From: Prevotella sp.
Lineage (GTDB): Bacteria; Bacteroidota; Bacteroidia; Bacteroidales; Bacteroidaceae
Length of the DNA: 64,000 nt
Direction of reading: 5' to 3'
Assembly (NCBI GenBank): GCA_017960525.1
Contig: JAGCZA010000140.1
Location: 1 to 64,000, forward strand
Position numbers and translations under genes: made by a program
Shown here: positions 52,001-61,912 of the stretch, one piece after another
How the letters are laid out: each line of letters begins with the position of its first letter
Numbering within the stretch: the stretch's first letter is position 1
Notes under the pieces: generated by a model
Database searches by the model: none
Seen by the model: only the letters and a program-made list of their open reading frames with translations
What the model was told of the DNA's origin: nothing

Positions 52001-54869
52001 CGAGCAGACCCACCAGTCCTCCTACCTTTGCGCCGCCGCCCACGCTACCACTAAGTATTCCGCAGTTGTAGATGCGGGTACTGCCTGTAGCCTCGTTGCA
52101 GATGGCACCTACGTTAGTGCCAACACTGATGCTTACATTGTCGAGGATGACATTCTTGATGACGGCTCCATCTGCGTAGCCCACAAGCGAATGGCCTACG
52201 CCGTAGATGGTTTTTAGCTGACCGTCGATGGTTCCTTTGAAGGGGTCTCCTGCTGTACCGATAACCTTTGTAACATCAAAGCCCTCACTTAAAATATAGT
52301 TGCCATACATGTTGGTGATTTCATCCGAGCAGTAAACCAGTCCTCCAGATGACGAGGCTTTAGGTAGGACAAACAGGGTGGTCTGTGTCCCTTCATCGTC
52401 GCTTAATGGGGCTGTAGGCTGCTGGGCGTCGAGGGTAGAGATTGACGTCGCCACGTTATGATGGTCGAATCGGGGCATCAGTCGTATGTTTCCGTTGTCG
52501 TCGCTGACAGCCATAAACGTTGAATTCGTGACATGCAACATCTGATAGCCAGTACCTGTTGTCTTATCCATGTTATAGTAGTCAGATGCAACGAAAGCTT
52601 CGCCATAATCCCCCAACGTCACAGTCTTTGCACCCGTATAGGTCGATCGCATTCCACCACTGCCATCAAGTACAGCATCATCAGCAGTAGTTTTGAAAAG
52701 CTTGCCCGTGTTAACACTTACTATCTGCAGGTTATAGGGGTCGAAGCCATTCTGTCCGTTAGTCTTATCGTAAACAGCGTCGTCGCGATTGGCGAAATAG
52801 GCGGCCTCTGTTTCATCCTTTGTCTTTTCCTCATAGCTTCCACTATAATTGTAGCCCATCTCCGTGTCGATATTGAAGTTTGGCTTGACGTACCAAAGCA
52901 ACCCAGATTCATTGGTGACAGTAGAGACATCAGAAACATTGGCTACAGGCTCAGTAGTGATGGTACTACCGTCGGTGGTCTTGGCGTAATTCGTGCCTTG
53001 CCTGATGAGATATTTAGAATTAGAGGCATCCGTTCCCGCCTGAGTATCTGCGCCGGTATATCGGCCACGATATGTGCCCATCACCTCGTAGGTGACATAG
53101 ATGTCGGCCAGCGTACCAGTAGATGCCACTTCGGGATAGTCGGCCAAAGAGGTGCTCTCTTTCTGATGCTGGGCATTCTTCGAGGCAGTTGCATTACCCC
53201 GGATTGGCTTATATTTTTGATAGCCGGACTCCTTGACGAAGTTCGTCCAGAAATGATACATCTTGACCATCGGGCTGTTATACTTCTTGATTGCAGCATC
53301 GTAAGCCTCCTTGTCAGAAGAACGGTTGGTGATGGGTTTTCGCATCACCTCCCAGCCATGTTGGTCAAGCAGAATCAGCGCACCATCGAGGTCGTATTCC
53401 ACCAGGTCGAAGTCACCGTTATAGTCGCTTCCCACCTTCGTACCCACGCCGATGGTCTGGAACCAGTGTGGACCATAGCCGAAGGCTTTCTTGGAATTGG
53501 TCCATGTCGAACCATTTGCCCATACGTTGTAGGTGTGCCAGCCTATTGCCCCTTCTCCAGTCGTGAGAGCACCTTCTATTTGGCCGTCTGTTGGAGTAGT
53601 GCCAATAGTGTAGGCATTGTACTTTGCGTGGATAACATTAGCTGCCGTAGGATTGGTCTTCCAGTAGTTCTCAAACGAAGTAACTGTATGCCGCACGTCA
53701 TTAGCAGCATTGCCGTCAAGATCGTCCACAACGTCAGAGGTGACCAAACGGAAGTGTGTACCTGTACCTTTAAGAATCATGTAGTCGGTGGGCTTATGAC
53801 GCACAGCATGGGCATCGTCTGAGGCATCATAGACCGAAGGATTGTTCGAAATGACACCGGTAACCACTTGGTTGTATCCCTGTGGTTTGTAGGTACGCAG
53901 ATAGGAGTAGTGCGTGTCATCGGTGGTACCGTCGGTTCGTGTTTGCAGTGAAGCAATCCTCAGACGGTAGGGATCGCCGCCTTCCAAGTACCAGGCCCAG
54001 CGGGTGCGGGTGCTGGCTACTGCATCTGCCGTTGCGTCCAACTTGTCCTGACCATAAACGAAAAGGCCGCCCTCACCGTTGATGTAGGGATAGATGCCCG
54101 GTTTTGCTGTAGTCTCAAAACCGTCGCCCGACTCCTGACGGAACGAGGTGCCGCCGGCAAACTTCAGCAGGTATTTCTTGCCATCGACGGCACGCTGTTC
54201 AGAACCGTCAAGGTCGTAGGTACTGCTGGGGTCGTATTTGACATAGATGTCTTTAGGGGCACTGTCGAAATTGGATATCTCGCTTGCTCCAGTTCTCAGC
54301 GTATAAACACCGTCTATGACATTGAAGTCACTTTCCTTATAGAAATGATAGGTCTGCACCAGCGGACTCTGCCACTTTGCCGGCACTTCGAGAGCATCGA
54401 AGTCACCGCTCTGCTCAACGATGATGTGTCCACTCATGTCGATGATATGGATGGTGTAGGCATTGGTGGGCTTGACAGTAAACGTCACGGTGACCAATGC
54501 ACCAGCATAGCCGGTGGGAACTTCAAAAGTGTAGTCGGCAGCAGCGTCTGTTTCATCTGAGCCTGTAACATCAAGCCTGTCTGCAATGGCGGGTGCTCTG
54601 CGGCGTGACTGCGCCTGGTTGAGATTTTGCAGTTTCTGCACGATGATATCCGATTTACTAATCAAATAGCCTTCAGCAGGTGTGACGGTGATGGTTACCG
54701 TCTGCCCTACAACGCTCTTAACCACTACTGATCCTCCTTCAGGAGAAGCTGGGTCGATAATGATATCCGTATCACTTAAAGCCCACGTTTCACTTGCTGC
54801 ACCCATAAAGAGTGCAAGCGTCAAAATGATTGTACGTATAATTCTTCCTGTATTCATATCTCGTTTCAT
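49035..54869 (-). CDS. Large exported GLUG-repeat protein with C-terminal YGGG motifs
   Basis: 1944 residues. Signal peptide: IIRTIILTLALFMGAASETWA (start at Met1 54869 or Met5 54857). The N-terminal half is a series of strand-rich modules around KYLLKFAGG, KYLIRQG, LYVKPNF and YNLQIVS repeats. A GLUG segment lies near the middle (VGGLVGLLDGSSRVINCFSYANI, GGIVGYNN). Then come a long beta-rich stretch and, from about residue 1700, the V-(Y/F)-G-G-G motifs shared with the 3552-residue protein (VTGNVYGGGSLGKVSGD, GHVFGGGEESYV, YGNVFGGGDRGVVEG). No type IX sorting domain is visible at the very end. The start codon overlaps the stop of the ATPase gene by four bases (ATGA), suggesting coupled translation. 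Function unknown; surface location inferred. Confidence 0.85.
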   Translation of the reverse strand: MKRDMNTGRIIRTIILTLALFMGAASETWALSDTDIIIDPASPEGGSVVVKSVVGQTVTITVTPAEGYLISKSDIIVQKLQNLNQAQSRRRAPAIADRLDVTGSDETDAAADYTFEVPTGYAGALVTVTFTVKPTNAYTIHIIDMSGHIIVEQSGDFDALEVPAKWQSPLVQTYHFYKESDFNVIDGVYTLRTGASEISNFDSAPKDIYVKYDPSSTYDLDGSEQRAVDGKKYLLKFAGGTSFRQESGDGFETTAKPGIYPYINGEGGLFVYGQDKLDATADAVASTRTRWAWYLEGGDPYRLRIASLQTRTDGTTDDTHYSYLRTYKPQGYNQVVTGVISNNPSVYDASDDAHAVRHKPTDYMILKGTGTHFRLVTSDVVDDLDGNAANDVRHTVTSFENYWKTNPTAANVIHAKYNAYTIGTTPTDGQIEGALTTGEGAIGWHTYNVWANGSTWTNSKKAFGYGPHWFQTIGVGTKVGSDYNGDFDLVEYDLDGALILLDQHGWEVMRKPITNRSSDKEAYDAAIKKYNSPMVKMYHFWTNFVKESGYQKYKPIRGNATASKNAQHQKESTSLADYPEVASTGTLADIYVTYEVMGTYRGRYTGADTQAGTDASNSKYLIRQGTNYAKTTDGSTITTEPVANVSDVSTVTNESGLLWYVKPNFNIDTEMGYNYSGSYEEKTKDETEAAYFANRDDAVYDKTNGQNGFDPYNLQIVSVNTGKLFKTTADDAVLDGSGGMRSTYTGAKTVTLGDYGEAFVASDYYNMDKTTGTGYQMLHVTNSTFMAVSDDNGNIRLMPRFDHHNVATSISTLDAQQPTAPLSDDEGTQTTLFVLPKASSSGGLVYCSDEITNMYGNYILSEGFDVTKVIGTAGDPFKGTIDGQLKTIYGVGHSLVGYADGAVIKNVILDNVSISVGTNVGAICNEATGSTRIYNCGILSGSVGGGAKVGGLVGLLDGSSRVINCFSYANINSGTDKGGIVGYNNKASTQSSLTTMVMNCMFYGNIADGNNISPVYGGTEINNVAGGMNNYNYYRYRSPYSVDKKITKYNRALAMEEKFINRFERYRLLLNSNKKLAAKYASTSDVTVNPDDMAKWVLETADRTIDNPYPYPVLKQQGKYPSIINYDAKNAPDSTLVGRLKGGKLGRILAVTIKTKSEKTDGGQSWPTATTSDVQTTSLNLIRTDKDEVRFNFNYDKVQLPYYNDVGTGNYTENRVVTGWKITDITGGTAGTYNPEDEWGGYNFADRNCTNKDKYSVSGRVFSQGAYWDVPNGVTAITIEPYWAIANYVSDDTYDVVYNKDYAIQTFTPFGTQYSNNSTIDIYNDGSTDQKVYNTISAALAGFNNTNKTVYDQAVVLVGNVHQYANPTNVDTPYTVMSIDMNHDNEPDYSYIFTHDNRRPISPIRYDFINIMGVAEAQIPNGATLLRNVSIFNLKGWFEITNTCVVNFSQFEYDNNKDSQNGVTKSSAPLILLGGTFEQLVSTQKSECSTGTKYIHVGSNAWFAKFGTGTHSDGSKFTPHVPISVTGGDYDEFYLSGTYQPTISNMQSDNAECYISGGHFGEMAGASLEAIQGDVRWDINWADITNFYGGGVNAVNPITGDIRVDMTNSHVHLYCGGPKFGDMTEEKKVTTNATDCHFDTFFGAGYGGNAYNRVKYKDEQNVEPNSQQSNYTSERGKYYDGTSSSTSYGKKGKGVATDFDYEFFVWSTGGTGSRFYVKFITFSLATTHSVTSKLTKCKVTGNVYGGGSLGKVSGDVNTMLTNCDVNGNVFGAGYSATLPKIDVRTAPAFIEGKEPKKNMNIGMFEPGEANTTEEYEWKQLTTMPGNGQAGMISNDDGNYVYTNENLNKSNLGSVAGNVTLTIKGDSKIGTDGDATKGHVFGGGEESYVTKSKDSNNQPIANTGNTTVYIEGNTQVYGNVFGGGDRGVVEGSTEVNIRETPSENP

Positions 54870-56476
54870 TTTTTTACTATTTTATAACTGTCGATGGTAC
54901 GGCGGTCCTCACTTATATTCATGCCTACGGCTACGATGGAGCGGCTATCGGCGGCGAAGCGCACAGCGTAGTCCTTCTTCAGAATCTGGTCGGCGGCCTC
55001 ATCTGCCGACTTGCCGTATTTTAGTTCTATGATGTATATTGTGTCGGGCATCTTCAGGACAATGTCCATACGTCCGTCGGCAGTCTGGTCTTCTGCCTGC
55101 ACGTCGGCTCCCACACCCACTAAGGCGGCATAGATGAGCGACTGATAGAGCTGCTCGTTCTGGTTCTTGTCCGTAATAGAATATGGAATGCCGGCATACC
55201 AGCGGCGTACCACCTCGATAAACTGCTCGATGGAGATTTTTTTGAAGCGAAGGTCGTTGTAGGCATTTGCCAGCGTGTCCTGGCTACCCACGTAGTCCTC
55301 CATGTAATACTGGTAGAGTGAGTAGGCAAAACCTTCGCGCACCTCTTCATTGGGAAATCCCAAGGTGAATTGTTTAGTGAGTGGGTCGTATTCCTTCAGC
55401 GTCAGGTAGCCGCTTTGGTACAGCACGGGGATGGGGTCGGTGATGCGCTCGGTGGGCGCGTCGAAACGGCGGAGCGGATACTGACAGCCATCTAACTGAT
55501 GTATGCTGAGGCTGTGCTGACGCATCACGTTGATGAGCATCGTCGGCGTGCCGGTGGAGAACCAGAAATGCTGGATGTCGCCCATTGCAAAAGCATTGAT
55601 GAGGCTCCAGGGACAATAGATGTCGGTCATCTCATTGGAGAAGTGGTAGCCGTCGTAGGTCTGCTTCAGCTTCGCCACCACGTCATCGTAGGTATAGTGC
55701 AGCCCCCAGCGGCCGTAGGTCTTGTTCATCTTCTCCGCCAGCAGTTCTATGTCGGGCTTCATCTGTGTGAGCAGTTCCTCTTCGGTAATGCCGCAGACGG
55801 CCTCGTAGGCAGGGTCGAAGGTCAGCTGCTGCAGGTTGTTCAGCTCGCTGAACACCGACAGCTGGGAGAACTTCGAGATGCCCGTCAGGAAGACGAAGCG
55901 CAGATACTGTGCCTGTGCTTTCAGGGGCGAAAAGAGGTTGCGTATGCGGTCGCGGATATAGTCCTGCAACTCGCGGTTGTTGATGCTGTCGAGCATCGGC
56001 GCGTCGTACTCGTCAACGAGGATGACCACCTTCTCCCCCGTCTCCTTATAGGCAGCCTGGATGATGTTCTTCAGCCTGACATCGTATGCGAAGGCATCGC
56101 TTTCCTGGGGCGCGTTCCAAAGCTGTTCGTAGTCACGCAACATGCTGTTGACAGTGCTGTGCAGCCGCTCTTTCTCGTAATACTTGCCACTCGACATGTC
56201 AAGGCGGATGACGGGGTACTGCCGCCATTCCGTCTCCTTGTCGTAGATATAGAGTCCCTCGAACAGCTCCTTGCGGCCCTCGAAGTAGCAGCGCAGCGTG
56301 TCGACCAGCAGCGACTTGCCGAAGCGGCGCGGACGGCTCAGGAAGAAGTACTGGGCATCGGTCTCCACCATCTGCCACACATACTTCGTCTTGTCCACAT
56401 ATACGGACTTCCGCTGGCGTATCCAGTCAAATGTCTGCACGCCCACGGCATAGCCTCGTCTTTTATATTCTTCCAT
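54866..56476 (-). CDS. AAA-ATPase_like / PDDEXK_9 protein
   Basis: 536 residues of a family greatly expanded in Bacteroidales. The N-terminal P-loop is FLSRPRRFGKSLLVDTL, the Walker B is VVILVDEYDAPML, and the GISKFSQLSVFSELNNL motif is typical. The C-terminal nuclease-like domain shows GRMDIVLKMPDTIYIIELKYGKSADEAADQIL. Family function has not been shown. It overlaps the 1944-residue gene by ATGA and is 43 bp downstream of the 995-residue gene. It is unrelated in fine sequence to the AAA_35-like pair, so three ATPase subfamilies sit in this one cluster. Conserved neighbours of such ATPases are usually variable, so a link to surface proteins is speculative. Confidence 0.88.
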   Translation of the reverse strand: MEEYKRRGYAVGVQTFDWIRQRKSVYVDKTKYVWQMVETDAQYFFLSRPRRFGKSLLVDTLRCYFEGRKELFEGLYIYDKETEWRQYPVIRLDMSSGKYYEKERLHSTVNSMLRDYEQLWNAPQESDAFAYDVRLKNIIQAAYKETGEKVVILVDEYDAPMLDSINNRELQDYIRDRIRNLFSPLKAQAQYLRFVFLTGISKFSQLSVFSELNNLQQLTFDPAYEAVCGITEEELLTQMKPDIELLAEKMNKTYGRWGLHYTYDDVVAKLKQTYDGYHFSNEMTDIYCPWSLINAFAMGDIQHFWFSTGTPTMLINVMRQHSLSIHQLDGCQYPLRRFDAPTERITDPIPVLYQSGYLTLKEYDPLTKQFTLGFPNEEVREGFAYSLYQYYMEDYVGSQDTLANAYNDLRFKKISIEQFIEVVRRWYAGIPYSITDKNQNEQLYQSLIYAALVGVGADVQAEDQTADGRMDIVLKMPDTIYIIELKYGKSADEAADQILKKDYAVRFAADSRSIVAVGMNISEDRRTIDSYKIVKK

Positions 56477-56519: not shown

Positions 56520-59507
56520 TTATCTCACAACAATCTTCTGGCCGTTCCTCAGGTAGAGACCTTTCTTCATCGGCTTTCCGTTGAGGCGTCGACCGTCGAG
56601 AGTGTACCATGAGCCGGAAGGGTGAGAGGTGAGGGTTGAGAGGTGAGAGTCTTCGATACTGGTGGCCTCGCTCCAGTTGATGGTGAGGCGGGCGGGAGCA
56701 GGACGGCTGCCACTTACTATGGCACTCTTGGGAAGGTAAATTTTCCCTGCTTCCAGGGTGCCGGCAGCATTGAGCACGAACTCGCCATTGTAGAGGATGT
56801 AGATTTGGCCTGCAGTGAAAGATGTTCCTGTTGACACTGCCAGTTTGTTCTCACTTACTGTAGGTGCTGCCCCGCTTGTCGGCTGTGCCATGAATCCGTT
56901 GGAGCTGGCAGTGGAAAGCAGTATCACGGGAACGTCTTCAGGGATATAGCTCAACGATGGTGCCGTCAATACATTGCCGCTGGTGACTCCTGTCACAATA
57001 TGTGCCGTATAGCCCGTCGGTGTGGCGAAAGCCCCCTCGGTGCTACCAATGACGAAGGAGGCAGCCCATTCTGTATTGGCGCTATTGGGATGGAAGTCAA
57101 CGTTCACGAACTTGGCCTTGACCGTTCCAGTATAGTTGTTGACACCTTGATAAATAGCTTCATAATACTTGGTAGTAGCGTCCCCCGTAGTGGTAACGGT
57201 GTAATCATTTCCCGCCCCTACTGTAAGGGCTGTTCCGTTGTGAGAAATGGAAGGAGTGAAGGAATAGGTGTCGTTCCCATTGTCGGTTTTCGTTATATCG
57301 ACGCTGATGCCATTGGCGGGAACATAGGTGCCACTGCCCAGACTCTTCGGGGTGATGGTGAAGTTTGCACCAGTATAGCTGATTGTATAGTTAGAATTAG
57401 AAGCCAATGTTCCCTGTTCGATGGCGTATGTGCCAACATTATTGCCAGCGGCACGAATAAGTGCACCCGACAAAACGCCAGCTGCCGTGTCTTCAAATTT
57501 TAAACCTGTAGTCGTATAAGTCAGCTCAGGATCAGCATCGCCATATCCTTTTGATTTCGCATCGGCTGTGACAGTCAGCACAGCCGGGTCAATGGTGAAC
57601 GTCGTAGAGCCGTAAACAATAAAACCGTCATCTGCGCCGCTATCCGTAATGGTGACTGTCGCTGTTCCTGCATTTTGGTTGTTTGTATAAGTCAGCAGAT
57701 AGGCTGTTGAAGGAATCGTTGCCGAACTGTATTCAAGGTGGTCTATTGGCTTTTTCTCCGTTCCGTCATAAACGTATGAGAAGCCTGTTTTATATTGAAA
57801 GGAGGGCTCGGTGATAATAGTCTGTGTCGCTGTCTCGGAAGCGAGATAGCCGGCATGAGTGGCTATGGCCTTTACTACGGTATTGGAAGTTACGGAGAAA
57901 GGATCGCTGTAGGCGGTACTACTTGTGGTGGGAGTGCCGCCGTCGATGGTGTAGCGAACAGTAGCCCCGCTGCCAGAATTAATGGTGACCAGAGAGGTAG
58001 AACTGTTGAAGCTGATGGTCGGAGTATCACATTGTGGCACGTCGTATGTTGTAACATCGGAAGATACTGCACCCACATAGGCGATAGCCTTGATGACCGT
58101 TGCATCGCCCAAGGAGAAGGCCGTAGAATATTCTGTGCTTGTATTGTCTGGAGTATCGCCGTTGGTAGTGTAGTATATCGTGGCTCCGGCAGTGGCAGTG
58201 CTCAAAGAGATAGTGCCGTCGAAGTTGTTGGTAATGGTCGGTGCTTCTACAGCGACATAATCCGTCGCCACAAAAACCCAGTGCCCTTTGTCTGTGTTCC
58301 TATCACTACGCAAATCGAGTTTCTCATTATTTGCAATACTGGAGGGTGCCATACTGTTGGCAAAGTTGCTTACATCGTATTTAGACATAGCCAACTTGGG
58401 CATGATGGAATACCAAGAATTTCCCTGGTTATCATAGGAATTCACCATCACAAATTGGAAACGATCAGCATCTCCAGCAACATAATCAGACAGTATAAAT
58501 TTATCATTTTGATTGCTTCCATTAATGGTTGTTGCCGTAAACTTCAAATATTTCTCCGTCTGCGCATTCACAATATAGTAATATTTTAGGTTGTCAATCT
58601 GGGCGTCCGTTGCCGCCTCTAAGAAATACCAAACCTTTTTCTTGTCATCCGCAGTTGAGATAGTCACATAATTGTTATCATCGTAGGAAACATTATAGGT
58701 TGAGCTCCTCACATGGTTTATATTGTAATAATGTTTATCGTTGCTAGTTGAAACCACAAACGGTAACCCGGATTGCGGCCATTGCACGTCATTTCTTGCC
58801 ACAAACTTCCATTGTGAGTTTAGATCTCCGACAGGAGTGTTATTCCAATTACTCGCTTTAAGCCAATAACCATTGCCAAATTGGAGATTGCCGCTTCTTT
58901 TGCTCACCCAACCCGTTTGATCATTAGTTCCAGTGTCTTTTGGATAAATCACCCAACTACCTGAGGTGATACCTTGTGGAGTATCAAATGAGAACTTGAA
59001 CTTATCGTCATCAGCAGAGGCATAGGCTGCAACTTGAATAGTATTGTTATCCCCCGCGTTACCAGTTTTTTTCAAATACGTTCCCGTTTCCTTGTTAATG
59101 ATGTAATAGTAGTTAGTTTCACCTGATTCCATAAAATACCACAATGCTCTCAAAGTAGGTGCATTGGTAGTGGAAGCACAAGTGTTATCGGAGTTAGGGA
59201 CAATATAGAAACCTTTGCCACCAACAGATTCAATCCAATAGAATTTCTCAGAATGGTTAGTAACATCATCATCTGTAGTCACTTCAAAAGGAAGGCTTTG
59301 TCCCCACATTTCACCAACTTCCAATGTCATCATCAGGAGCAGGAGGAGCATCCGGATTACAAATCCTGATACTTGGTTCTGTCGGATTCTTGCATCTCTT
59401 TGGTAGCAAGCGAACAGAGTTCGAGCGGCAAATCCGACAGAACGGCAGCGCAAGTGGCGGCAGTCAGTTGTCTGTATGTTCCGTTTCATATCGTATGTCA
59501 TATTCAT
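56520..59507 (-). CDS. Exported MBG / chitobiase-C repeat protein
   Basis: 995 residues if read from ATG 59507; the hydrophobic signal-like segment (MLLLLLMMTLEVGEMWGQ) starts only at residue 53, ATG 59351, and could be the true start. Two chitobiase-C-like units (ATIYYTTNGDTPDNTSTEYS, TVRYTIDGGTPTTSSTAYS) are followed by MBG-type beta-sandwiches (LTVTADAKSKGYGDADPELTY, YTISYTGANFTITPKSLGSG). The end (GSWYTLDGRRLNGKPMKKGLYLRNGQKIVVR) is the usual short C-terminal module of secreted Prevotella proteins and may be a type IX-type sorting signal. The N-terminal 52 codons are made from a dispersed 5' cassette found twice more at 60.4-60.6 and 61.6-61.8 kb. Likely a cell-surface protein. Confidence 0.82.
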   Translation of the reverse strand: MNMTYDMKRNIQTTDCRHLRCRSVGFAARTLFACYQRDARIRQNQVSGFVIRMLLLLLMMTLEVGEMWGQSLPFEVTTDDDVTNHSEKFYWIESVGGKGFYIVPNSDNTCASTTNAPTLRALWYFMESGETNYYYIINKETGTYLKKTGNAGDNNTIQVAAYASADDDKFKFSFDTPQGITSGSWVIYPKDTGTNDQTGWVSKRSGNLQFGNGYWLKASNWNNTPVGDLNSQWKFVARNDVQWPQSGLPFVVSTSNDKHYYNINHVRSSTYNVSYDDNNYVTISTADDKKKVWYFLEAATDAQIDNLKYYYIVNAQTEKYLKFTATTINGSNQNDKFILSDYVAGDADRFQFVMVNSYDNQGNSWYSIMPKLAMSKYDVSNFANSMAPSSIANNEKLDLRSDRNTDKGHWVFVATDYVAVEAPTITNNFDGTISLSTATAGATIYYTTNGDTPDNTSTEYSTAFSLGDATVIKAIAYVGAVSSDVTTYDVPQCDTPTISFNSSTSLVTINSGSGATVRYTIDGGTPTTSSTAYSDPFSVTSNTVVKAIATHAGYLASETATQTIITEPSFQYKTGFSYVYDGTEKKPIDHLEYSSATIPSTAYLLTYTNNQNAGTATVTITDSGADDGFIVYGSTTFTIDPAVLTVTADAKSKGYGDADPELTYTTTGLKFEDTAAGVLSGALIRAAGNNVGTYAIEQGTLASNSNYTISYTGANFTITPKSLGSGTYVPANGISVDITKTDNGNDTYSFTPSISHNGTALTVGAGNDYTVTTTGDATTKYYEAIYQGVNNYTGTVKAKFVNVDFHPNSANTEWAASFVIGSTEGAFATPTGYTAHIVTGVTSGNVLTAPSLSYIPEDVPVILLSTASSNGFMAQPTSGAAPTVSENKLAVSTGTSFTAGQIYILYNGEFVLNAAGTLEAGKIYLPKSAIVSGSRPAPARLTINWSEATSIEDSHLSTLTSHPSGSWYTLDGRRLNGKPMKKGLYLRNGQKIVVR

Positions 59508-59540
59508 TCGTGTAATTCGTTAAATTCGCGGTTCTTGTTA
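59351..59540 (-). repeat. 5' cassette copy A, fused to the 995-residue gene
   Basis: Leader AATTCGT linker, ATG AAT ATG ACA start, MKRNIQTTD segment, palindromic GGATTTGTAATCC-like repeats, then a Leu/Met-rich segment. Copies B (60424-60600) and C (61620-61842) show the same order. Inside copy A a 13-bp perfect inverted repeat GTTCTGTCGGATT / AATCCGACAGAAC is also present. Confidence 0.7.
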
Positions 59541-59566
59541 TATTTTGTTAATTCCTTGCAGAATTA

Positions 59567-59598
59567 TTTGGTTCTTATTGGATAAATGCCTATCTTTG
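59567..59598 (+). promoter_or_regulatory. Promoter of a putative small RNA opposite the Abi gene
   Basis: TTTG (59567-59570), 20-base spacer, TATCTTTG (59591-59598): full consensus. It points into a 50-base non-coding stretch that runs toward the 3' end of the Abi gene on the other strand. Confidence 0.7.
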
Positions 59599-59604
59599 CA
59601 GTGT

Positions 59605-59652
59605 TGAATCCCATCAGCCCCTGACGCAAGTCAAGCTGGTGGGTATTGTTTT
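59605..59652 (+). ncRNA. Putative small structured RNA next to the Abi_2 gene
   Basis: From the predicted start the sequence folds into one compact hairpin. The outer helix is CCCATCAGC (59610-59618) with GCTGGTGGG (59635-59643), nine pairs including one G-U. The inner helix is TGAC/GTCA closed by a GCAA tetraloop (59622-59633). TATTGTTTTA follows and could serve as a terminator. No start codon with a useful frame lies inside. The predicted product is about 45-50 nt and is convergent with the Abi gene, overlapping only its stop codon. Inferred from sequence alone; an alternative is a shared terminator for Abi, but the minus-strand side of the hairpin lacks a T-run. Confidence 0.45.
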
Positions 59653-60349
59653 ATACTGGTTTTAGTCTGTCTATCTTTTTGCAAACACGATTTACATGGT
59701 CTATGCCATAGAGAAAAACACTACTTTTGATACCCATCCATTCAAGTAACACCTGCATCTTTTGGTATTCATTACGGATGTAGTCAGTGTATATTTGTTC
59801 CCCTTGAGCAGGAAAGCAAATAGGTTCGTGGTGTGCTATGCGATTACGTAGAGTGTTTATCTTGTCCAGTTCATTGAATATGTAAGAGGGGTTATATTGA
59901 GCTTGAGCAGAAGACCGTGGACGATTAGGGAAAATCCGAAGCAGGTCTCTTCCCGTTTGGCGATATTGTATTGGAGAGAACATGTATTTCCATATTCCGA
60001 ATTCCATTTCTGCCAGCAATTTGGTGTGTGAATAGGCATTGTCTCTCTGTAATTTGTTATATGCAAAATAAATTATGTCACGCGTTTTAGATAATATTGG
60101 CAATGTAAAGATGCCATTAGGCATAACGGAATTTTTCAGCCATTCAGTACCAAAACGAGCGGACAAATGACTATTGATTGCATTACGTAGTGCAACTTCA
60201 AAAAAACTGATTATTGCAAAGGCGGTCTGGGCCAGCTCTACGTTATAGCGGTAGAGCGTCATCGCCTTACGGGTATCGCCACAACAGGCCTGTACATAGC
60301 GTGTCATGCGCTCCGCAGAGATAATCCGTTCAAAGTCCTTGTATTTCAT
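59651..60349 (-). CDS. Abi_2 (AbiF/AbiD-like) HEPN-domain protein
   Basis: 232 residues, no signal peptide. The family core is MTLYRYNVELAQTAFAIISFFEVALRNAINSHL near residues 31-62. The conserved C-terminal motif LDKINTLRNRIAHHEPICF holds the HEPN R-x4-H motif, Arg168 and His173. An R-x5-H (Arg55-His61) occurs in the first helix region. Abi_2 proteins mediate phage abortive infection and are thought to be HEPN ribonucleases, related to the nuclease domains of Cas13. It has a textbook promoter. A candidate structured RNA lies just past its 3' end on the opposite strand, and a 50-codon ORF of repeat origin lies upstream. Defence role inferred from family. Confidence 0.85.
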   Translation of the reverse strand: MKYKDFERIISAERMTRYVQACCGDTRKAMTLYRYNVELAQTAFAIISFFEVALRNAINSHLSARFGTEWLKNSVMPNGIFTLPILSKTRDIIYFAYNKLQRDNAYSHTKLLAEMEFGIWKYMFSPIQYRQTGRDLLRIFPNRPRSSAQAQYNPSYIFNELDKINTLRNRIAHHEPICFPAQGEQIYTDYIRNEYQKMQVLLEWMGIKSSVFLYGIDHVNRVCKKIDRLKPV

Positions 60350-60370
60350 ACTGTGGCTCCTTTAAATGTG

Positions 60371-60401
60371 CAAAGTTACGACAATTTTTTGAAATGGCAA
60401 A
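60371..60401 (-). promoter_or_regulatory. Promoter of the Abi_2 gene
   Basis: Minus-strand TTTG (60398-60401), 19-base spacer, TAACTTTG (60371-60378). Expected start is near 60364, a leader of about 15 bases. Confidence 0.75.
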
Positions 60402-60423
60402 GTTTTTGACGAAATAACTGAGG

Positions 60424-60576
60424 TTACGCTATAGTGGCTTCCACGGTCATTATCAGGAGCAGGATTGCAAATCCTGATACTCGGTGCTGCCGGATTGCAA
60501 ATCCGCCAGAACGGCTGCGCATATAGCGGCCGTCGGTTGTCTGTATGTTCCGTTTCATATCGTATGTCATATTCAT
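60424..60576 (-). CDS. 50-residue ORF from 5' cassette copy B
   Basis: ATG 60576 opens a frame reading MNMTYDMKRNIQTTDGRYMR, then SRSGGFAIRQHRVSGFAILLLIMTVEATIA and stop. It parallels the first 65 residues of the 995-residue protein, including the hydrophobic end, but stops there. It is 30 bp after the RhuM stop on the same strand. It is either the decayed 5' end of a lost secreted-protein gene or a small peptide gene. I lean to the former. Confidence 0.4.
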   Translation of the reverse strand: MNMTYDMKRNIQTTDGRYMRSRSGGFAIRQHRVSGFAILLLIMTVEATIA

Positions 60577-60606
60577 TCGTGTAATTCGTTAAATTCGTGG
60601 TTCTTA

Positions 60607-61530
60607 TTATAATTGGTTCAGAATGATGTTCTTGTCAATTTGAAGCTTGTCTATGGCGAACAGTTTGCGGCCTAAGTCCTTGAAGGAGGCACCGCAATGC
60701 CATAGTTCATCGTCGATGATGAGGAATCTGTCGTGGAACGGACGAGTGAACGTTTGCACTGTAACCGTTGCACTGGGATGTTCCTGGTTGTGCAACTGCT
60801 GCAAGCGCTGCAAGCTCGCATCTATGTGCTCTGTGTATATGGCAGCCTGTACACCAACATTCCGCACGTCAAGCATGTCGAAGGTTTTGGCATCAACGTA
60901 ATTGTCGATAAGAACCACCTCATGCTGCGCCGTCTTTATCAAGTCTTCTACGAACAGGCGCGCCGAAAACACCTGTCCATTGCTGAATACCCCCACGACT
61001 GGTGGCAGACTGGTCTGCACGAAGAAGTTAAGTTTCTGCTGATGTTCGGAAAGAGTGGATTGTATTTGACTAATGGTTGCATTTTGTATCGACATTACCT
61101 TTTCCATCTTCGACTCCAAAGCATCTAAACGATGGTTTATAGTAAACCCTTTTAGTAAATGCTCTCTTATTATGCCCGTTGCCCATTGGCGGAACTTTGT
61201 ACCTCGTAATGACTTCACGCGGTATCCTACCGAAATGATAACGTCCAAGTTGTAATAAGCAACTTCATGGGTCTGTTTTTTTCCCTCTATTGCTCCGTGC
61301 AAAGTGGTTGTTCGATTTTTTCGAACTACCACTCTTTCGTCTAATTCCCCTTCCTTGAAAATATTGGATATATGAAAACTTATAGTAGACTTCGCCTTTT
61401 GGAAAAGAACAACAATCTGCGCCTGTGTCAGCCACACAGTCTCGTCCTCCAGCCGGACCTCTAAGCGGATGGTCTCGTCAGGCTGGTAGAGGATGATCTC
61501 GCCTTTATTGTTCTCTATGCTGTTCGTCAT
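60607..61530 (-). CDS. RhuM-family protein (DNA-binding N-domain, phospholipase-D-like C-domain)
   Basis: About 307 residues from ATG 61530 (MTNSIENNKGEII). N-terminal RhuM core: ETVWLTQAQIVVLFQKAKSTISFHISNIFKEGELDERVVVRKNRTTT, then VAYYNLDVIISVGYRVKSLRGTKFRQWATGIIREHLLKGF. A C-terminal half reads LIDNYVDAKTFDMLDV and HDRFLIIDDELWHCGASFKDLGRKLFAI, a phospholipase-D-like arrangement. RhuM was named from a Salmonella pathogenicity island; its biochemical role is unsettled, though it often occurs on mobile and defence islands. It is the intact counterpart of the remnant at 47645-48124. It has its own promoter with a leader of about 17 bases. Confidence 0.88.
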   Translation of the reverse strand: MTNSIENNKGEIILYQPDETIRLEVRLEDETVWLTQAQIVVLFQKAKSTISFHISNIFKEGELDERVVVRKNRTTTLHGAIEGKKQTHEVAYYNLDVIISVGYRVKSLRGTKFRQWATGIIREHLLKGFTINHRLDALESKMEKVMSIQNATISQIQSTLSEHQQKLNFFVQTSLPPVVGVFSNGQVFSARLFVEDLIKTAQHEVVLIDNYVDAKTFDMLDVRNVGVQAAIYTEHIDASLQRLQQLHNQEHPSATVTVQTFTRPFHDRFLIIDDELWHCGASFKDLGRKLFAIDKLQIDKNIILNQL

Positions 61531-61553
61531 TTCTGCTTCGTTGCTATTGTGTG

Positions 61554-61585
61554 CAAAATTACCACTTTTAAGCGTAACGGCCAAA
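61554..61585 (-). promoter_or_regulatory. RhuM promoter
   Basis: Minus-strand TTTG (61582-61585), 20-base spacer, TAATTTTG (61554-61561), 23 bases before the start codon. Confidence 0.75.
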
Positions 61586-61619: not shown

Positions 61620-61842
61620 GCTCCCACGGTCATCATCACCATCAGGAGTAACATTCGGATTACAAATCCTGATACTCGGTGCTGTCGGATTACAAATCCG
61701 CCAGAACGGGGTACTCGCAGCTGTCGGATAACAAATCCGCCAGAACGGGTACTCGCAGCTGCCGGATTACAAATCCGACTGAACGGCTACGCGGGTGGTG
61801 GCAGTCAGTTGTCTGTATGTTCCGTTTCATATCGTGTGTCAT
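61620..61842 (-). pseudogene. 5' cassette copy C: decayed start of a secreted-protein gene with palindromic repeats
   Basis: ATG 61842 reads MTHDMKRNIQTTDCHHPR, then SRSVGFVIRQLRVPVLAD and a stop at about 61690. Another frame continues GFVIRQHRVSGFVIRM, a hydrophobic LLLMVMMTVGATGAWS, and stop. Two tandem units of GGATTTGTTATCCGACAGC-like sequence differ by one base in a C run, which explains the frameshift. The palindrome CGGATTACAAATCCG occurs several times here. It corresponds to copy A upstream of the 995-residue gene, so it is the remnant of a paralogue. Confidence 0.65.
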
Positions 61843-61912
61843 ATTTCGTTCAATCCGTTGTCAGACGCCTTCATATTGTCTTTAATAGCGCGTATGTACA
61901 TAAATTAATGTG

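What the first reader, a model, noticed from the sequence alone, without database searches (positions are those of the whole stretch)
59567..60401. Abi_2/HEPN gene facing a promoter plus compact hairpin RNA
On the plus strand a full consensus promoter (TTTG-N20-TATCTTTG) is followed within 12 bases by a two-tier hairpin with a GCAA tetraloop and a TATTGTTTTA tail. It ends at the stop codon of an Abi_2-family gene that is read from its own strong promoter. The hairpin has no coding frame. From memory, HEPN proteins of this AbiF type have been reported with adjacent structured RNAs acting as an antitoxin or guide, and have been proposed as ancestors of Cas13; I cannot confirm the details here. 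The Abi protein carries R-x4-H (Arg168-His173) and a further R-x5-H.
Basis: partly seen in the sequence, partly recalled or inferred. Interest (0 to 1): 0.78.

Follow-up and report, generated by a model that had tools for sequence, protein, structure and literature searches.

The report
Hairpin RNA partner of Abi_2 toxin
A small toxin-like gene of gut bacteria is nearly always found beside a tiny hairpin RNA with its own promoter that probably keeps it switched off, and similar pairs, with different RNA shapes around one shared core, turn up in distant bacteria and resemble the RNA-toxin pairs thought to have given rise to Cas13.

Summary
Window 59599-59656(+) holds a hairpin RNA gene, directly after a Bacteroidetes promoter, at the 3' end of a 232-aa Abi_2/HEPN gene (59651-60349, -). 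A covariance model from 11 copies finds the RNA in 76 of 80 relatives of the gene (66 of 70 outside the seed); in the four misses the gene starts within 79 nt of the end of the contig. It usually lies upstream on the opposite strand (69 of 78); the window's convergent place is a minority (6 of 78). A TAnnTTTG box lies just before 74 of 78 copies (2% of random windows). Helices covary; Rfam has no match. Sister Abi_2 clades carry other divergent RNAs, and RNA type follows the protein tree. These RNAs and the Rfam abiF RNA fit one module. By analogy with AbiF-AbiFr and AbiF-RCd22 it is most likely an RNA antitoxin of the HEPN protein; transcription, toxicity and binding are untested. About half of the genome-wide RNA hits lack a neighbouring Abi gene; many of these have lost the promoter box, which suggests relics, but another role is open. 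New variant of a known kind.

The parts
59567..59598 (+). RNA promoter: TTTG (59567-59570), 20 nt, TATCTTTG (59591-59598), Bacteroidetes -33/-7 type (type named from general knowledge)
   Evidence: in Abi loci TAnnTTTG precedes the RNA in 74 of 78 cases, 73 of them at one offset, against 84 of 4000 random windows
59599..59656 (+). Type A hairpin RNA (start site about 59603, inferred): stem CCCATCAGC/GCTGGTGGG (59610-59618 with 59635-59643), internal loop CCC (59619-59621) opposite A (59634), inner stem TGAC/GTCA (59622-59625 with 59630-59633), GCAA loop, T-rich tail
   Evidence: fold z -4.8; model R2 77.5 bits, the only window match up to E 10 (the window RNA is in the seed of R1 and R2); covariation in relatives
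59651..60349 (-). Abi_2/HEPN protein gene, 232 aa, R168-x4-H173; its stop codon overlaps the RNA tail
   Evidence: Pfam PF07751 E 3.2e-8; PADLOC PD-T4-5 E 5.2e-14 and AbiD E 1.4e-6; conserved RNRIAHHE
60371..60378 (-). -7 box TAACTTTG of the Abi gene's own promoter
   Evidence: direct reading
59428..59549 (+). Direct repeat copy 1, flanking the Abi-RNA cassette
60497..60618 (+). Direct repeat copy 2 (91% to copy 1), between the Abi cassette and the RhuM gene

Best explanation
The plus-strand hairpin is a small RNA gene of about 50-60 nt with its own promoter and its own terminator-like U tail, and it is the dedicated partner of the neighbouring Abi_2/HEPN protein. Most likely it is an RNA antitoxin: the hairpin, with its CYC/N internal loop closed by a U-A pair, is held by the HEPN protein (a dimer, by analogy with AbiF) and blocks its RNase site while transcription is normal; when a phage or stress stops the supply of RNA or destroys it, the RNase is freed and halts growth. 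Shown here by computation: gene, promoter sequence, fold, covariation, near-constant linkage, co-diversification with the protein, and a core shared with the abiF RNA. Inferred: transcription, binding, inhibition, release and phage defence.
For: Linkage: R1, built from 11 RNAs (the window and 10 of the 80 loci), hits 76 of 80 Abi loci, 66 of 70 outside the seed; in the four misses (L053, L066, L073, L106) the match starts at 1-79 of the locus, so little or no upstream DNA is held. R2 hits, upstream and divergent, 5 of 8 plasmid-collection relatives fetched: Phocaeicola 61.7, Chryseobacterium 61.5, Hymenobacter 55.4, Riemerella 37.8, Neisseria 31.8 bits (the Phocaeicola RNA equals seed member L010, so four are held out), and viral contig L246 at 61.8 bits. 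Covariation: 114 cells changed on both sides against 26.8 in shuffles, 9 of 13 pairs. Promoter: 74 of 78. Position varies (69 upstream-opposite, 6 downstream-opposite, 2 downstream-same, 1 upstream-same) while the RNA is kept, which favours a trans-acting RNA. A second Abi gene of the window's genome (38% identical, internal TAG) also has it: R1 30.9 bits, E 5.2e-5. RNA type follows the protein tree: 5 changes for 6 labels, shuffled mean 20.8. Known relatives: RCd22 neutralises AbiF by direct binding (PMC12373285, abstract and sections 6, 7, 11, 13 read); PbAbiF-AbiFr complex 8VZ6 (PMC12737573, passages read).
Against: No expression, binding or toxicity data. Of 26 R1 hits in 301 genomes, 13 have no Abi gene or remnant nearby. 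Of 22 R2 hits in 393 genomes, 12 have none within about 1.5 kb and one (L180) lies 45 nt past a 309-aa AbiF-type gene. 18 of 22 genomes with such hits that I searched have no Abi of this clade. Two orphans (L159, L161) face the 3' end of a Schlafen-type helicase gene, and three (L168, L173, L185) follow other genes by about 21 nt.
Confidence: 0.78

Rival explanations
1. The hairpin is only an intrinsic terminator or a generic intergenic repeat that happens to lie beside Abi genes.
For: It has a U-rich tail. Four weak genome hits (L162, L163, L181, L182) lack the core and look like ordinary terminators; three orphans of one genus (L168, L173, L185) lie about 21 nt after a same-strand gene without the promoter box.
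Against: In the common arrangement it reads away from the Abi gene, and here opposite to it. A promoter box lies just before it in 74 of 78 copies. Bases that a terminator would not need (CYC, UG..CA, parts of the 5' leader) are conserved. The core pattern occurs in 1 of 100 genomes, the window's own.
Confidence: 0.06
2. The RNA is an antisense regulator of Abi mRNA (type I-like), not a protein ligand.
For: It lies on the opposite strand; in the window its tail overlaps the Abi stop codon, and the 3' end of an Abi mRNA that runs on would be complementary to it.
Against: In 69 of 78 cases it lies upstream and diverges from the gene (median 60 nt between the model end and the gene start), and 3 of 78 lie on the gene's strand. 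The conserved part is a self-paired hairpin with compensatory changes.
Confidence: 0.07
3. The RNA is a guide or activator that directs the HEPN nuclease, as crRNA does for Cas13.
For: The AbiF family is proposed as ancestor of Cas13 (PMC12373285, PMC12737573).
Against: No spacer-like variable segment: in the alignment the stem, internal loop and start of the tail are conserved; mainly the short apical loop and the far 3' end vary.
Confidence: 0.04
4. The RNA is a more general small RNA of defence islands or mobile regions with several partners, Abi being only one.
For: Hits without Abi lie near YhcG, RhuM, a restriction endonuclease domain protein, an AAA ATPase, a HepT/nucleotidyltransferase pair. 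Two (L159, L161, same genus) face the 3' end of a Schlafen-type helicase at 112 and 61 nt, much as the window RNA faces Abi.
Against: Apart from these two and a trio in another genus, the 26 neighbourhoods printed show no recurring partner that I could see (no systematic clustering was done). 13 of 28 such copies keep the promoter box against 74 of 78. L155 and L157 match the L012 locus on both sides of its Abi gene and keep two RNAs without it.
Confidence: 0.14

Closest known systems
AbiF with abiF RNA / AbiFr (Rfam RF03085; PbAbiF-AbiFr, PDB 8VZ6)
   Same: Abi_2 HEPN protein with an adjacent small hairpin RNA. The RF03085 consensus and the four instances looked at (three over Rfam's cut-off, L124 below it and with no Abi gene among its printed ORFs) contain the module found here under a relaxed rule; under the strict rule the consensus and 1 of 4
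   Different: Protein about 300 aa, on the other side of a 100/100 branch; RNA on the gene's own strand just upstream (L121-L123); the window RNA gives no RF03085 match up to E 10 and has a longer covarying stem
AbiF-RCd22 of Clostridioides difficile (PMC12373285)
   Same: RNA beside an Abi_2 toxin with R-x4-H; there the RNA neutralises the toxin by binding it
   Different: RCd22 has two abiF motifs and shares a promoter with the gene; here one hairpin, opposite strand, own promoter
PD-T4-5 / AbiD (PADLOC models)
   Same: Best hits in the defence library, E 5.2e-14 and 1.4e-6
   Different: Longer models (309 and 277 positions); no RNA is described for them in what I read; one paper search named PD-T4-5 and showed no paper with that term in its 20 rows
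Type III toxin-antitoxin systems (ToxIN, CptIN, TenpIN)
   Same: Proposed logic: an RNA antitoxin inhibits an RNase by binding
   Different: One RNA copy in the window, no tandem repeats; not upstream on the gene's strand; fold not compared

Membership tests
Abi_2 / HEPN (PF07751) | Pfam Abi_2 score over the curated cut-off | tested here: met
   34.5 bits against 25.6
Abi_2 / HEPN (PF07751) | R-x4-6-H catalytic motif | tested here: met
   R168-NRIA-H173; R168 and H173 invariant in 75 sequences, the window's included
Abi_2 / HEPN (PF07751) | Four-helix HEPN fold, dimer | not testable with these tools
   Structure prediction switched off; profile match to 8VZ6 only E 0.069
abiF RNA (RF03085) / AbiFr | Match to the Rfam model | tested here: not met
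   No match up to E 10 in 59450-60500
abiF RNA (RF03085) / AbiFr | Same-strand RNA just upstream of a ~300-aa AbiF gene | tested here: not met
   Opposite strand, 232 aa, separate protein group
abiF RNA (RF03085) / AbiFr | Core stem-CYC-U..A-N-stem (defined here, not by Rfam) | tested here: met
   57 of 59 type A seed RNAs (window included), shuffles 1.7%; RF03085 strict 1 of 4 and consensus, relaxed 4 of 4 and consensus, shuffles 3.7%
Type III toxin-antitoxin | RNA inhibits the protein by direct binding | not testable with these tools
   Needs biochemistry
Type III toxin-antitoxin | Tandem RNA repeats upstream in the toxin operon | tested here: not met
   One RNA copy in the window, other strand, past the gene's end
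PD-T4-5 defence system | Match to the PADLOC model | tested here: inconclusive
   E 5.2e-14, no curated cut-off given
Type I toxin-antitoxin | Antisense RNA complementary to the toxin mRNA | tested here: inconclusive
   In the window the tail overlaps the stop codon and could pair with the mRNA's 3' end; in 69 of 78 relatives the RNA diverges upstream of the gene

The most novel reading that the evidence does not exclude
Abi_2 HEPN toxins of Bacteroidota, Pseudomonadota and viral contigs belong to one ancient ribonucleoprotein toxin-antitoxin superfamily. Each protein clade has its own hairpin RNA, usually transcribed divergently from its own promoter, and these RNAs (types A, B, C, D and the Rfam abiF RNA) share one module: CYC opposite one base, closed by U-A. 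The abiF leader RNA, from which Cas13 guides are thought to descend, would be one branch in which the RNA came to lie on the gene's own strand. Orphan RNA copies may protect cells against incoming Abi elements.
Probability: 0.5. Interest if true: 0.82.

Novelty: new variant of a known kind. Interest (0 to 1): 0.74.

Why it matters
If true, RNA-controlled HEPN toxins are far wider than the AbiF systems described so far, and the abiF RNA is one branch of a larger RNA family that diversified with its proteins. That gives many RNA-protein pairs with which to ask which RNA bases silence a HEPN nuclease, how such RNAs are swapped or lost, and how a silencing RNA could have become the guide of Cas13. 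Type B pairs on plasmids of Escherichia coli, Aeromonas and Pantoea, and type A pairs in records of named strains of Prevotella, Segatella and Phocaeicola, make it directly testable.

Tried and rejected
Generic repeat or terminator: judged unlikely from the pattern search of 100 genomes and the fixed promoter. A first pattern with one base too many found nothing and was corrected. Viral-contig scan with the strict pattern: 7 hits whose flanks do not form the helix; in the three whose ORFs I listed (L114, L117, L120) the match lies inside an ORF; I take them as chance. Rfam: only weak unrelated hits near the window hairpin; none to RF03085 up to E 0.1 in 13 loci with types B and C and proteobacterial relatives, nor up to E 1 in six viral loci. 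Solved structures: 8VZ6 at E 0.069 and a histone at 0.97 with the profile, none with the single sequence. Four R1 hits with E above 0.1 (L069:1493, L043:67, L055:2133, L033:2869) were dropped before the counts but are among the rows. L029 and L031 were not looked at by eye for types B or C. Type D was picked by eye from 3 of 6 alphaproteobacterial regions (L192, L244, L245; not seen in L194, L236, L237), so its module count of 3 of 3 is partly circular. The first script that printed orphan RNAs read some places wrongly; they were redone. A first tree drawing failed on group labels and was repeated. The Cell 2025 paper on Cas13 origins did not appear in the held library; I know it only through PMC12373285 and PMC12737573. 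Of the genomes with orphan or remnant hits, three with weak hits (G297, G561, G730) were left out. Searches over many genomes use stricter filters, so hit counts are lower bounds.

Full report
What is there. The plus strand at 59567-59598 carries a Bacteroidetes-type promoter (TTTG, 20 nt, TATCTTTG), followed by a two-tier hairpin and a T-rich tail that overlaps the stop codon of a 232-aa gene on the minus strand. The stretch 59599-59660 folds at -27.3 kcal/mol, z -4.8, lower than all 200 shuffles. The gene is Abi_2 (PF07751), closest in PADLOC to PD-T4-5 and AbiD, with a conserved RNRIAHHE HEPN motif and its own TAACTTTG box.

Is the RNA tied to the gene? A scan of genome contigs with the protein found 102 relatives and kept the best 80 loci. 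An alignment of 11 RNAs (the window and 10 of the 80) gave model R1. R1 hits 76 of the 80 loci, that is 66 of the 70 outside the seed. In the four misses the match begins at position 1, 2, 6 or 79 of the locus, so little or no upstream DNA is held. L032 is 100% identical in protein and probably comes from the same or a very close organism. Of 78 RNAs in these loci, 69 lie upstream on the opposite strand, 6 downstream on the opposite strand (the window arrangement), 2 downstream and 1 upstream on the gene's strand; I did not check whether the two downstream same-strand copies belong to another gene. TAnnTTTG lies just before the model start in 74 of 78 (73 at one offset) against 84 of 4000 random windows. 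In a separate protein search of 301 genomes of the family, 30 loci were held in all (L002-L031). The 18 closest, L002-L019, all have an R1 or R2 match beside the gene; four (L011, L015, L016, L017) only weakly with R1 (E 0.002-0.016), L014 only with R2, and L003 is nearly the same locus as seed L034. A second Abi gene of the window's genome (38% identical, with an internal TAG) also has the RNA: R1 30.9 bits, E 5.2e-5, as L002; R2 then gives 54.7 bits, but L002 is in its seed.

Is the structure real? On 74 distinct rows 99.8% of pair cells are paired and 90 cells changed on both sides, against 18.3 in shuffles (fitted to the model, four weak matches included). On the 59-row alignment behind model R2: 97.8% paired, 114 cells against 26.8, 9 of 13 pairs with changes on both sides, and slid registers fall to 20-41%. 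The tetraloop switches between GCAA, GAAA and TTCG, among others.

How specific? The strict core pattern occurs in 1 of 100 genomes, the window's own. R1 gives 26 hits in 301 family genomes: 13 beside an Abi gene or remnant, 13 not. R2 gives 22 hits in 393 genomes of the order: 9 beside an Abi of this clade, 1 (L180) just past a 309-aa AbiF-type gene, 12 with neither within about 1.5 kb. So linkage is near-complete from the gene's side and about half from the RNA's side. Orphan copies look partly decayed: 13 of 28 keep the promoter box, and four weak hits (L162, L163, L181, L182) lack the core and look like ordinary terminators. L155 and L157 match both sides of the L012 locus (RNA, Abi, RNA) but have no Abi between the two RNAs, as expected if the gene was lost. 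Of the 22 such genomes searched (one of them, G155, with an Abi remnant beside its RNA), 18 have no Abi of this clade, and 11 have some Abi_2 match. Several orphans lie near other defence genes. Two in one genus (L159, L161) face the 3' end of a Schlafen-type helicase gene; three in another genus (L168, L173, L185) lie about 21 nt after a same-strand gene and lack the box. A role of their own is not excluded. Conversely, four of the 80 Abi copies read from the match start meet an early stop (L033, L052, L061, L110) and still have the RNA.

Wider relatives. Of eight relatives fetched from the plasmid collection, R2 finds the RNA, upstream and divergent, in five (36-49% protein identity): Phocaeicola 61.7, Chryseobacterium 61.5, Hymenobacter 55.4, Riemerella 37.8 and Neisseria 31.8 bits. 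The Phocaeicola RNA is the same as seed member L010. The other three (28-30% identity) give 18.0 bits (L193), 14.0 bits (L194) and nothing (L192). In 15 viral loci R2 gives one clear hit, L246, 61.8 bits. The next protein tier, L020-L027 (about 30% identity), gives no R2 match, but all 8 have another hairpin after TAnnTTTG in the same divergent place: type B in L022-L025, type C in L020, L021, L026, L027, and type C also in the Bacteroides faecis plasmid L193. Gammaproteobacterial relatives have a type B RNA: the Pantoea stretch matches 67 plasmid records, and none of the 25 listed places lies under a listed gene. In the nine gammaproteobacterial loci that I fetched it lies upstream and divergent (L240 by its blastn place only). 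The pattern CCTCTCCC..GGTGATGA is seen in 12 of 19 loci tested: 4 of Bacteroidota and 8 gammaproteobacterial. Type B covaries on 12 sequences (14 cells against 4.6, 0 of 500 shuffles as high), but its 4 of 14 pairs with double changes are reached by 46 of 500 shuffles and its count of further pair types by all 500. In three alphaproteobacterial loci I recognise a type D by eye. Rfam gives no relevant match for the loci of types A, B and C that were scanned; type D loci were not scanned.

A shared module. The types fit stem, C-Y-C, helix that begins with U-A, one base, stem: 57 of 59 type A seeds, 32 of 41 further R2 hits (decayed and false ones included), 11 of 12 type B, 4 of 5 type C, 3 of 3 type D. 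The Rfam abiF consensus fits; of four Bacteroidales instances 1 fits the strict rule and 4 a rule that allows any Watson-Crick second pair (three are over Rfam's cut-off, L124 is below it). Shuffles reach the module in 1.6-10% of cases, so each family alone is weak evidence; the agreement of families is the argument. I defined the module after seeing these types, so it needs a fresh test. A partial one is the set of viral loci: L256 and L257 have a divergent RNA with AAGC-CUC-UUCACAA-U-GCUU and AAGC-CUC-UUAACAA-U-GCUU, the cores of abiF instances L123 and L121, beside Abi_2 proteins only 25-27% identical to the window's. Of the other nine regions printed, L246 has the type A RNA, L255 a plausible module, L247 and L252 chance-like matches, and L258 a partial type A core (15.8 bits, E 0.22); the remaining four show none. 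The Rfam model does not call L256 or L257.

RNA type follows protein clade. In a tree of 46 proteins the six labels need 5 changes, the minimum, against 20.8 for shuffled labels; type A is one group (96/98), type C one group (97/92), type B weaker (85/42), type D not one group, and the five ~300-aa AbiF-type proteins (abiF RNA known beside three) are separate (100/100). I assigned the labels from the RNA found beside each gene, so loci in which I recognised no type are not in the tree.

Mechanism. From papers: in C. difficile the RNA RCd22 neutralises AbiF by direct binding, and stem-breaking mutations abolish this while compensating ones do not (PMC12373285; abstract and sections 6, 7, 11, 13 read). 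PbAbiF forms a dimer with one AbiFr RNA per monomer, and bulge bases C32 and U38 inhibit the RNase (PMC12737573; passages read). The system here has the same kinds of parts. Its RNA has a separate promoter, and the gene order changes while the pair is kept, so a trans-acting RNA-protein interaction is the best reading. Antisense control is unlikely for the common arrangement, though the window's own convergent arrangement would allow it. A guide role is unlikely because I saw no spacer. Loss of a short-lived RNA during infection would free the nuclease; this step is inference.

Novelty. RNA-neutralised Abi_2 toxins are known (AbiF). This RNA family, its divergent gene order and the shared module I did not find in print; that rests on nine searches of the held library. 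The Cell 2025 paper did not appear there and may report some of it. I file it as a new variant of a known kind.

Noticed in passing
window 59428-59549, 60497-60618, 61769-61890: Three copies of a 122-nt direct repeat (91% and 70% to the first) separate the Abi-RNA cassette and a RhuM-family gene, as if defence cassettes were slotted between repeats; an 81-nt part of it also has short partial matches on other contigs.
   Followed up: partly
window 60607-61584 (-): RhuM-family gene (PF13310), similar to PADLOC candidate PDC-S05 (E 1.7e-110); the Pfam RhuM match covers only residues 86-155.
   Followed up: no
L012 1404-1465(-) and 2284-2348(+): One Abi gene with two different type A RNAs, one downstream on the gene's strand and one upstream divergent; related loci L155 and L157 keep both RNAs and lack the gene.
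   Followed up: partly
L256 and L257, upstream of 1501, minus strand: Viral contigs in which a short Abi_2 gene has a divergent RNA with the core of Rfam abiF instances but no Rfam match.
   Followed up: partly
L188 158-1063 and 1501-2181: A Chryseobacterium plasmid with a ~300-aa Abi family gene before a short Abi gene that has the type A RNA.
   Followed up: no
L180 1501-1535: A type A-like core without the usual promoter box, 45 nt past the stop of a 309-aa AbiF-type gene on the same strand.
   Followed up: no
L159 7677-7736(+) and L161 7694-7755(-): Orphan type A RNAs in two genomes of one genus that face the 3' end of a Schlafen-type helicase gene at 112 and 61 nt, like the window RNA faces Abi.
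   Followed up: no
L033, L052, L061, L110: Abi copies that meet an early stop when read from the match start, while the RNA beside them is kept.
   Followed up: no
window 54866-56476 (-): 536-aa gene that looks like an AAA/PD-(D/E)XK protein (label from memory); no NCBIfam match.
   Followed up: no
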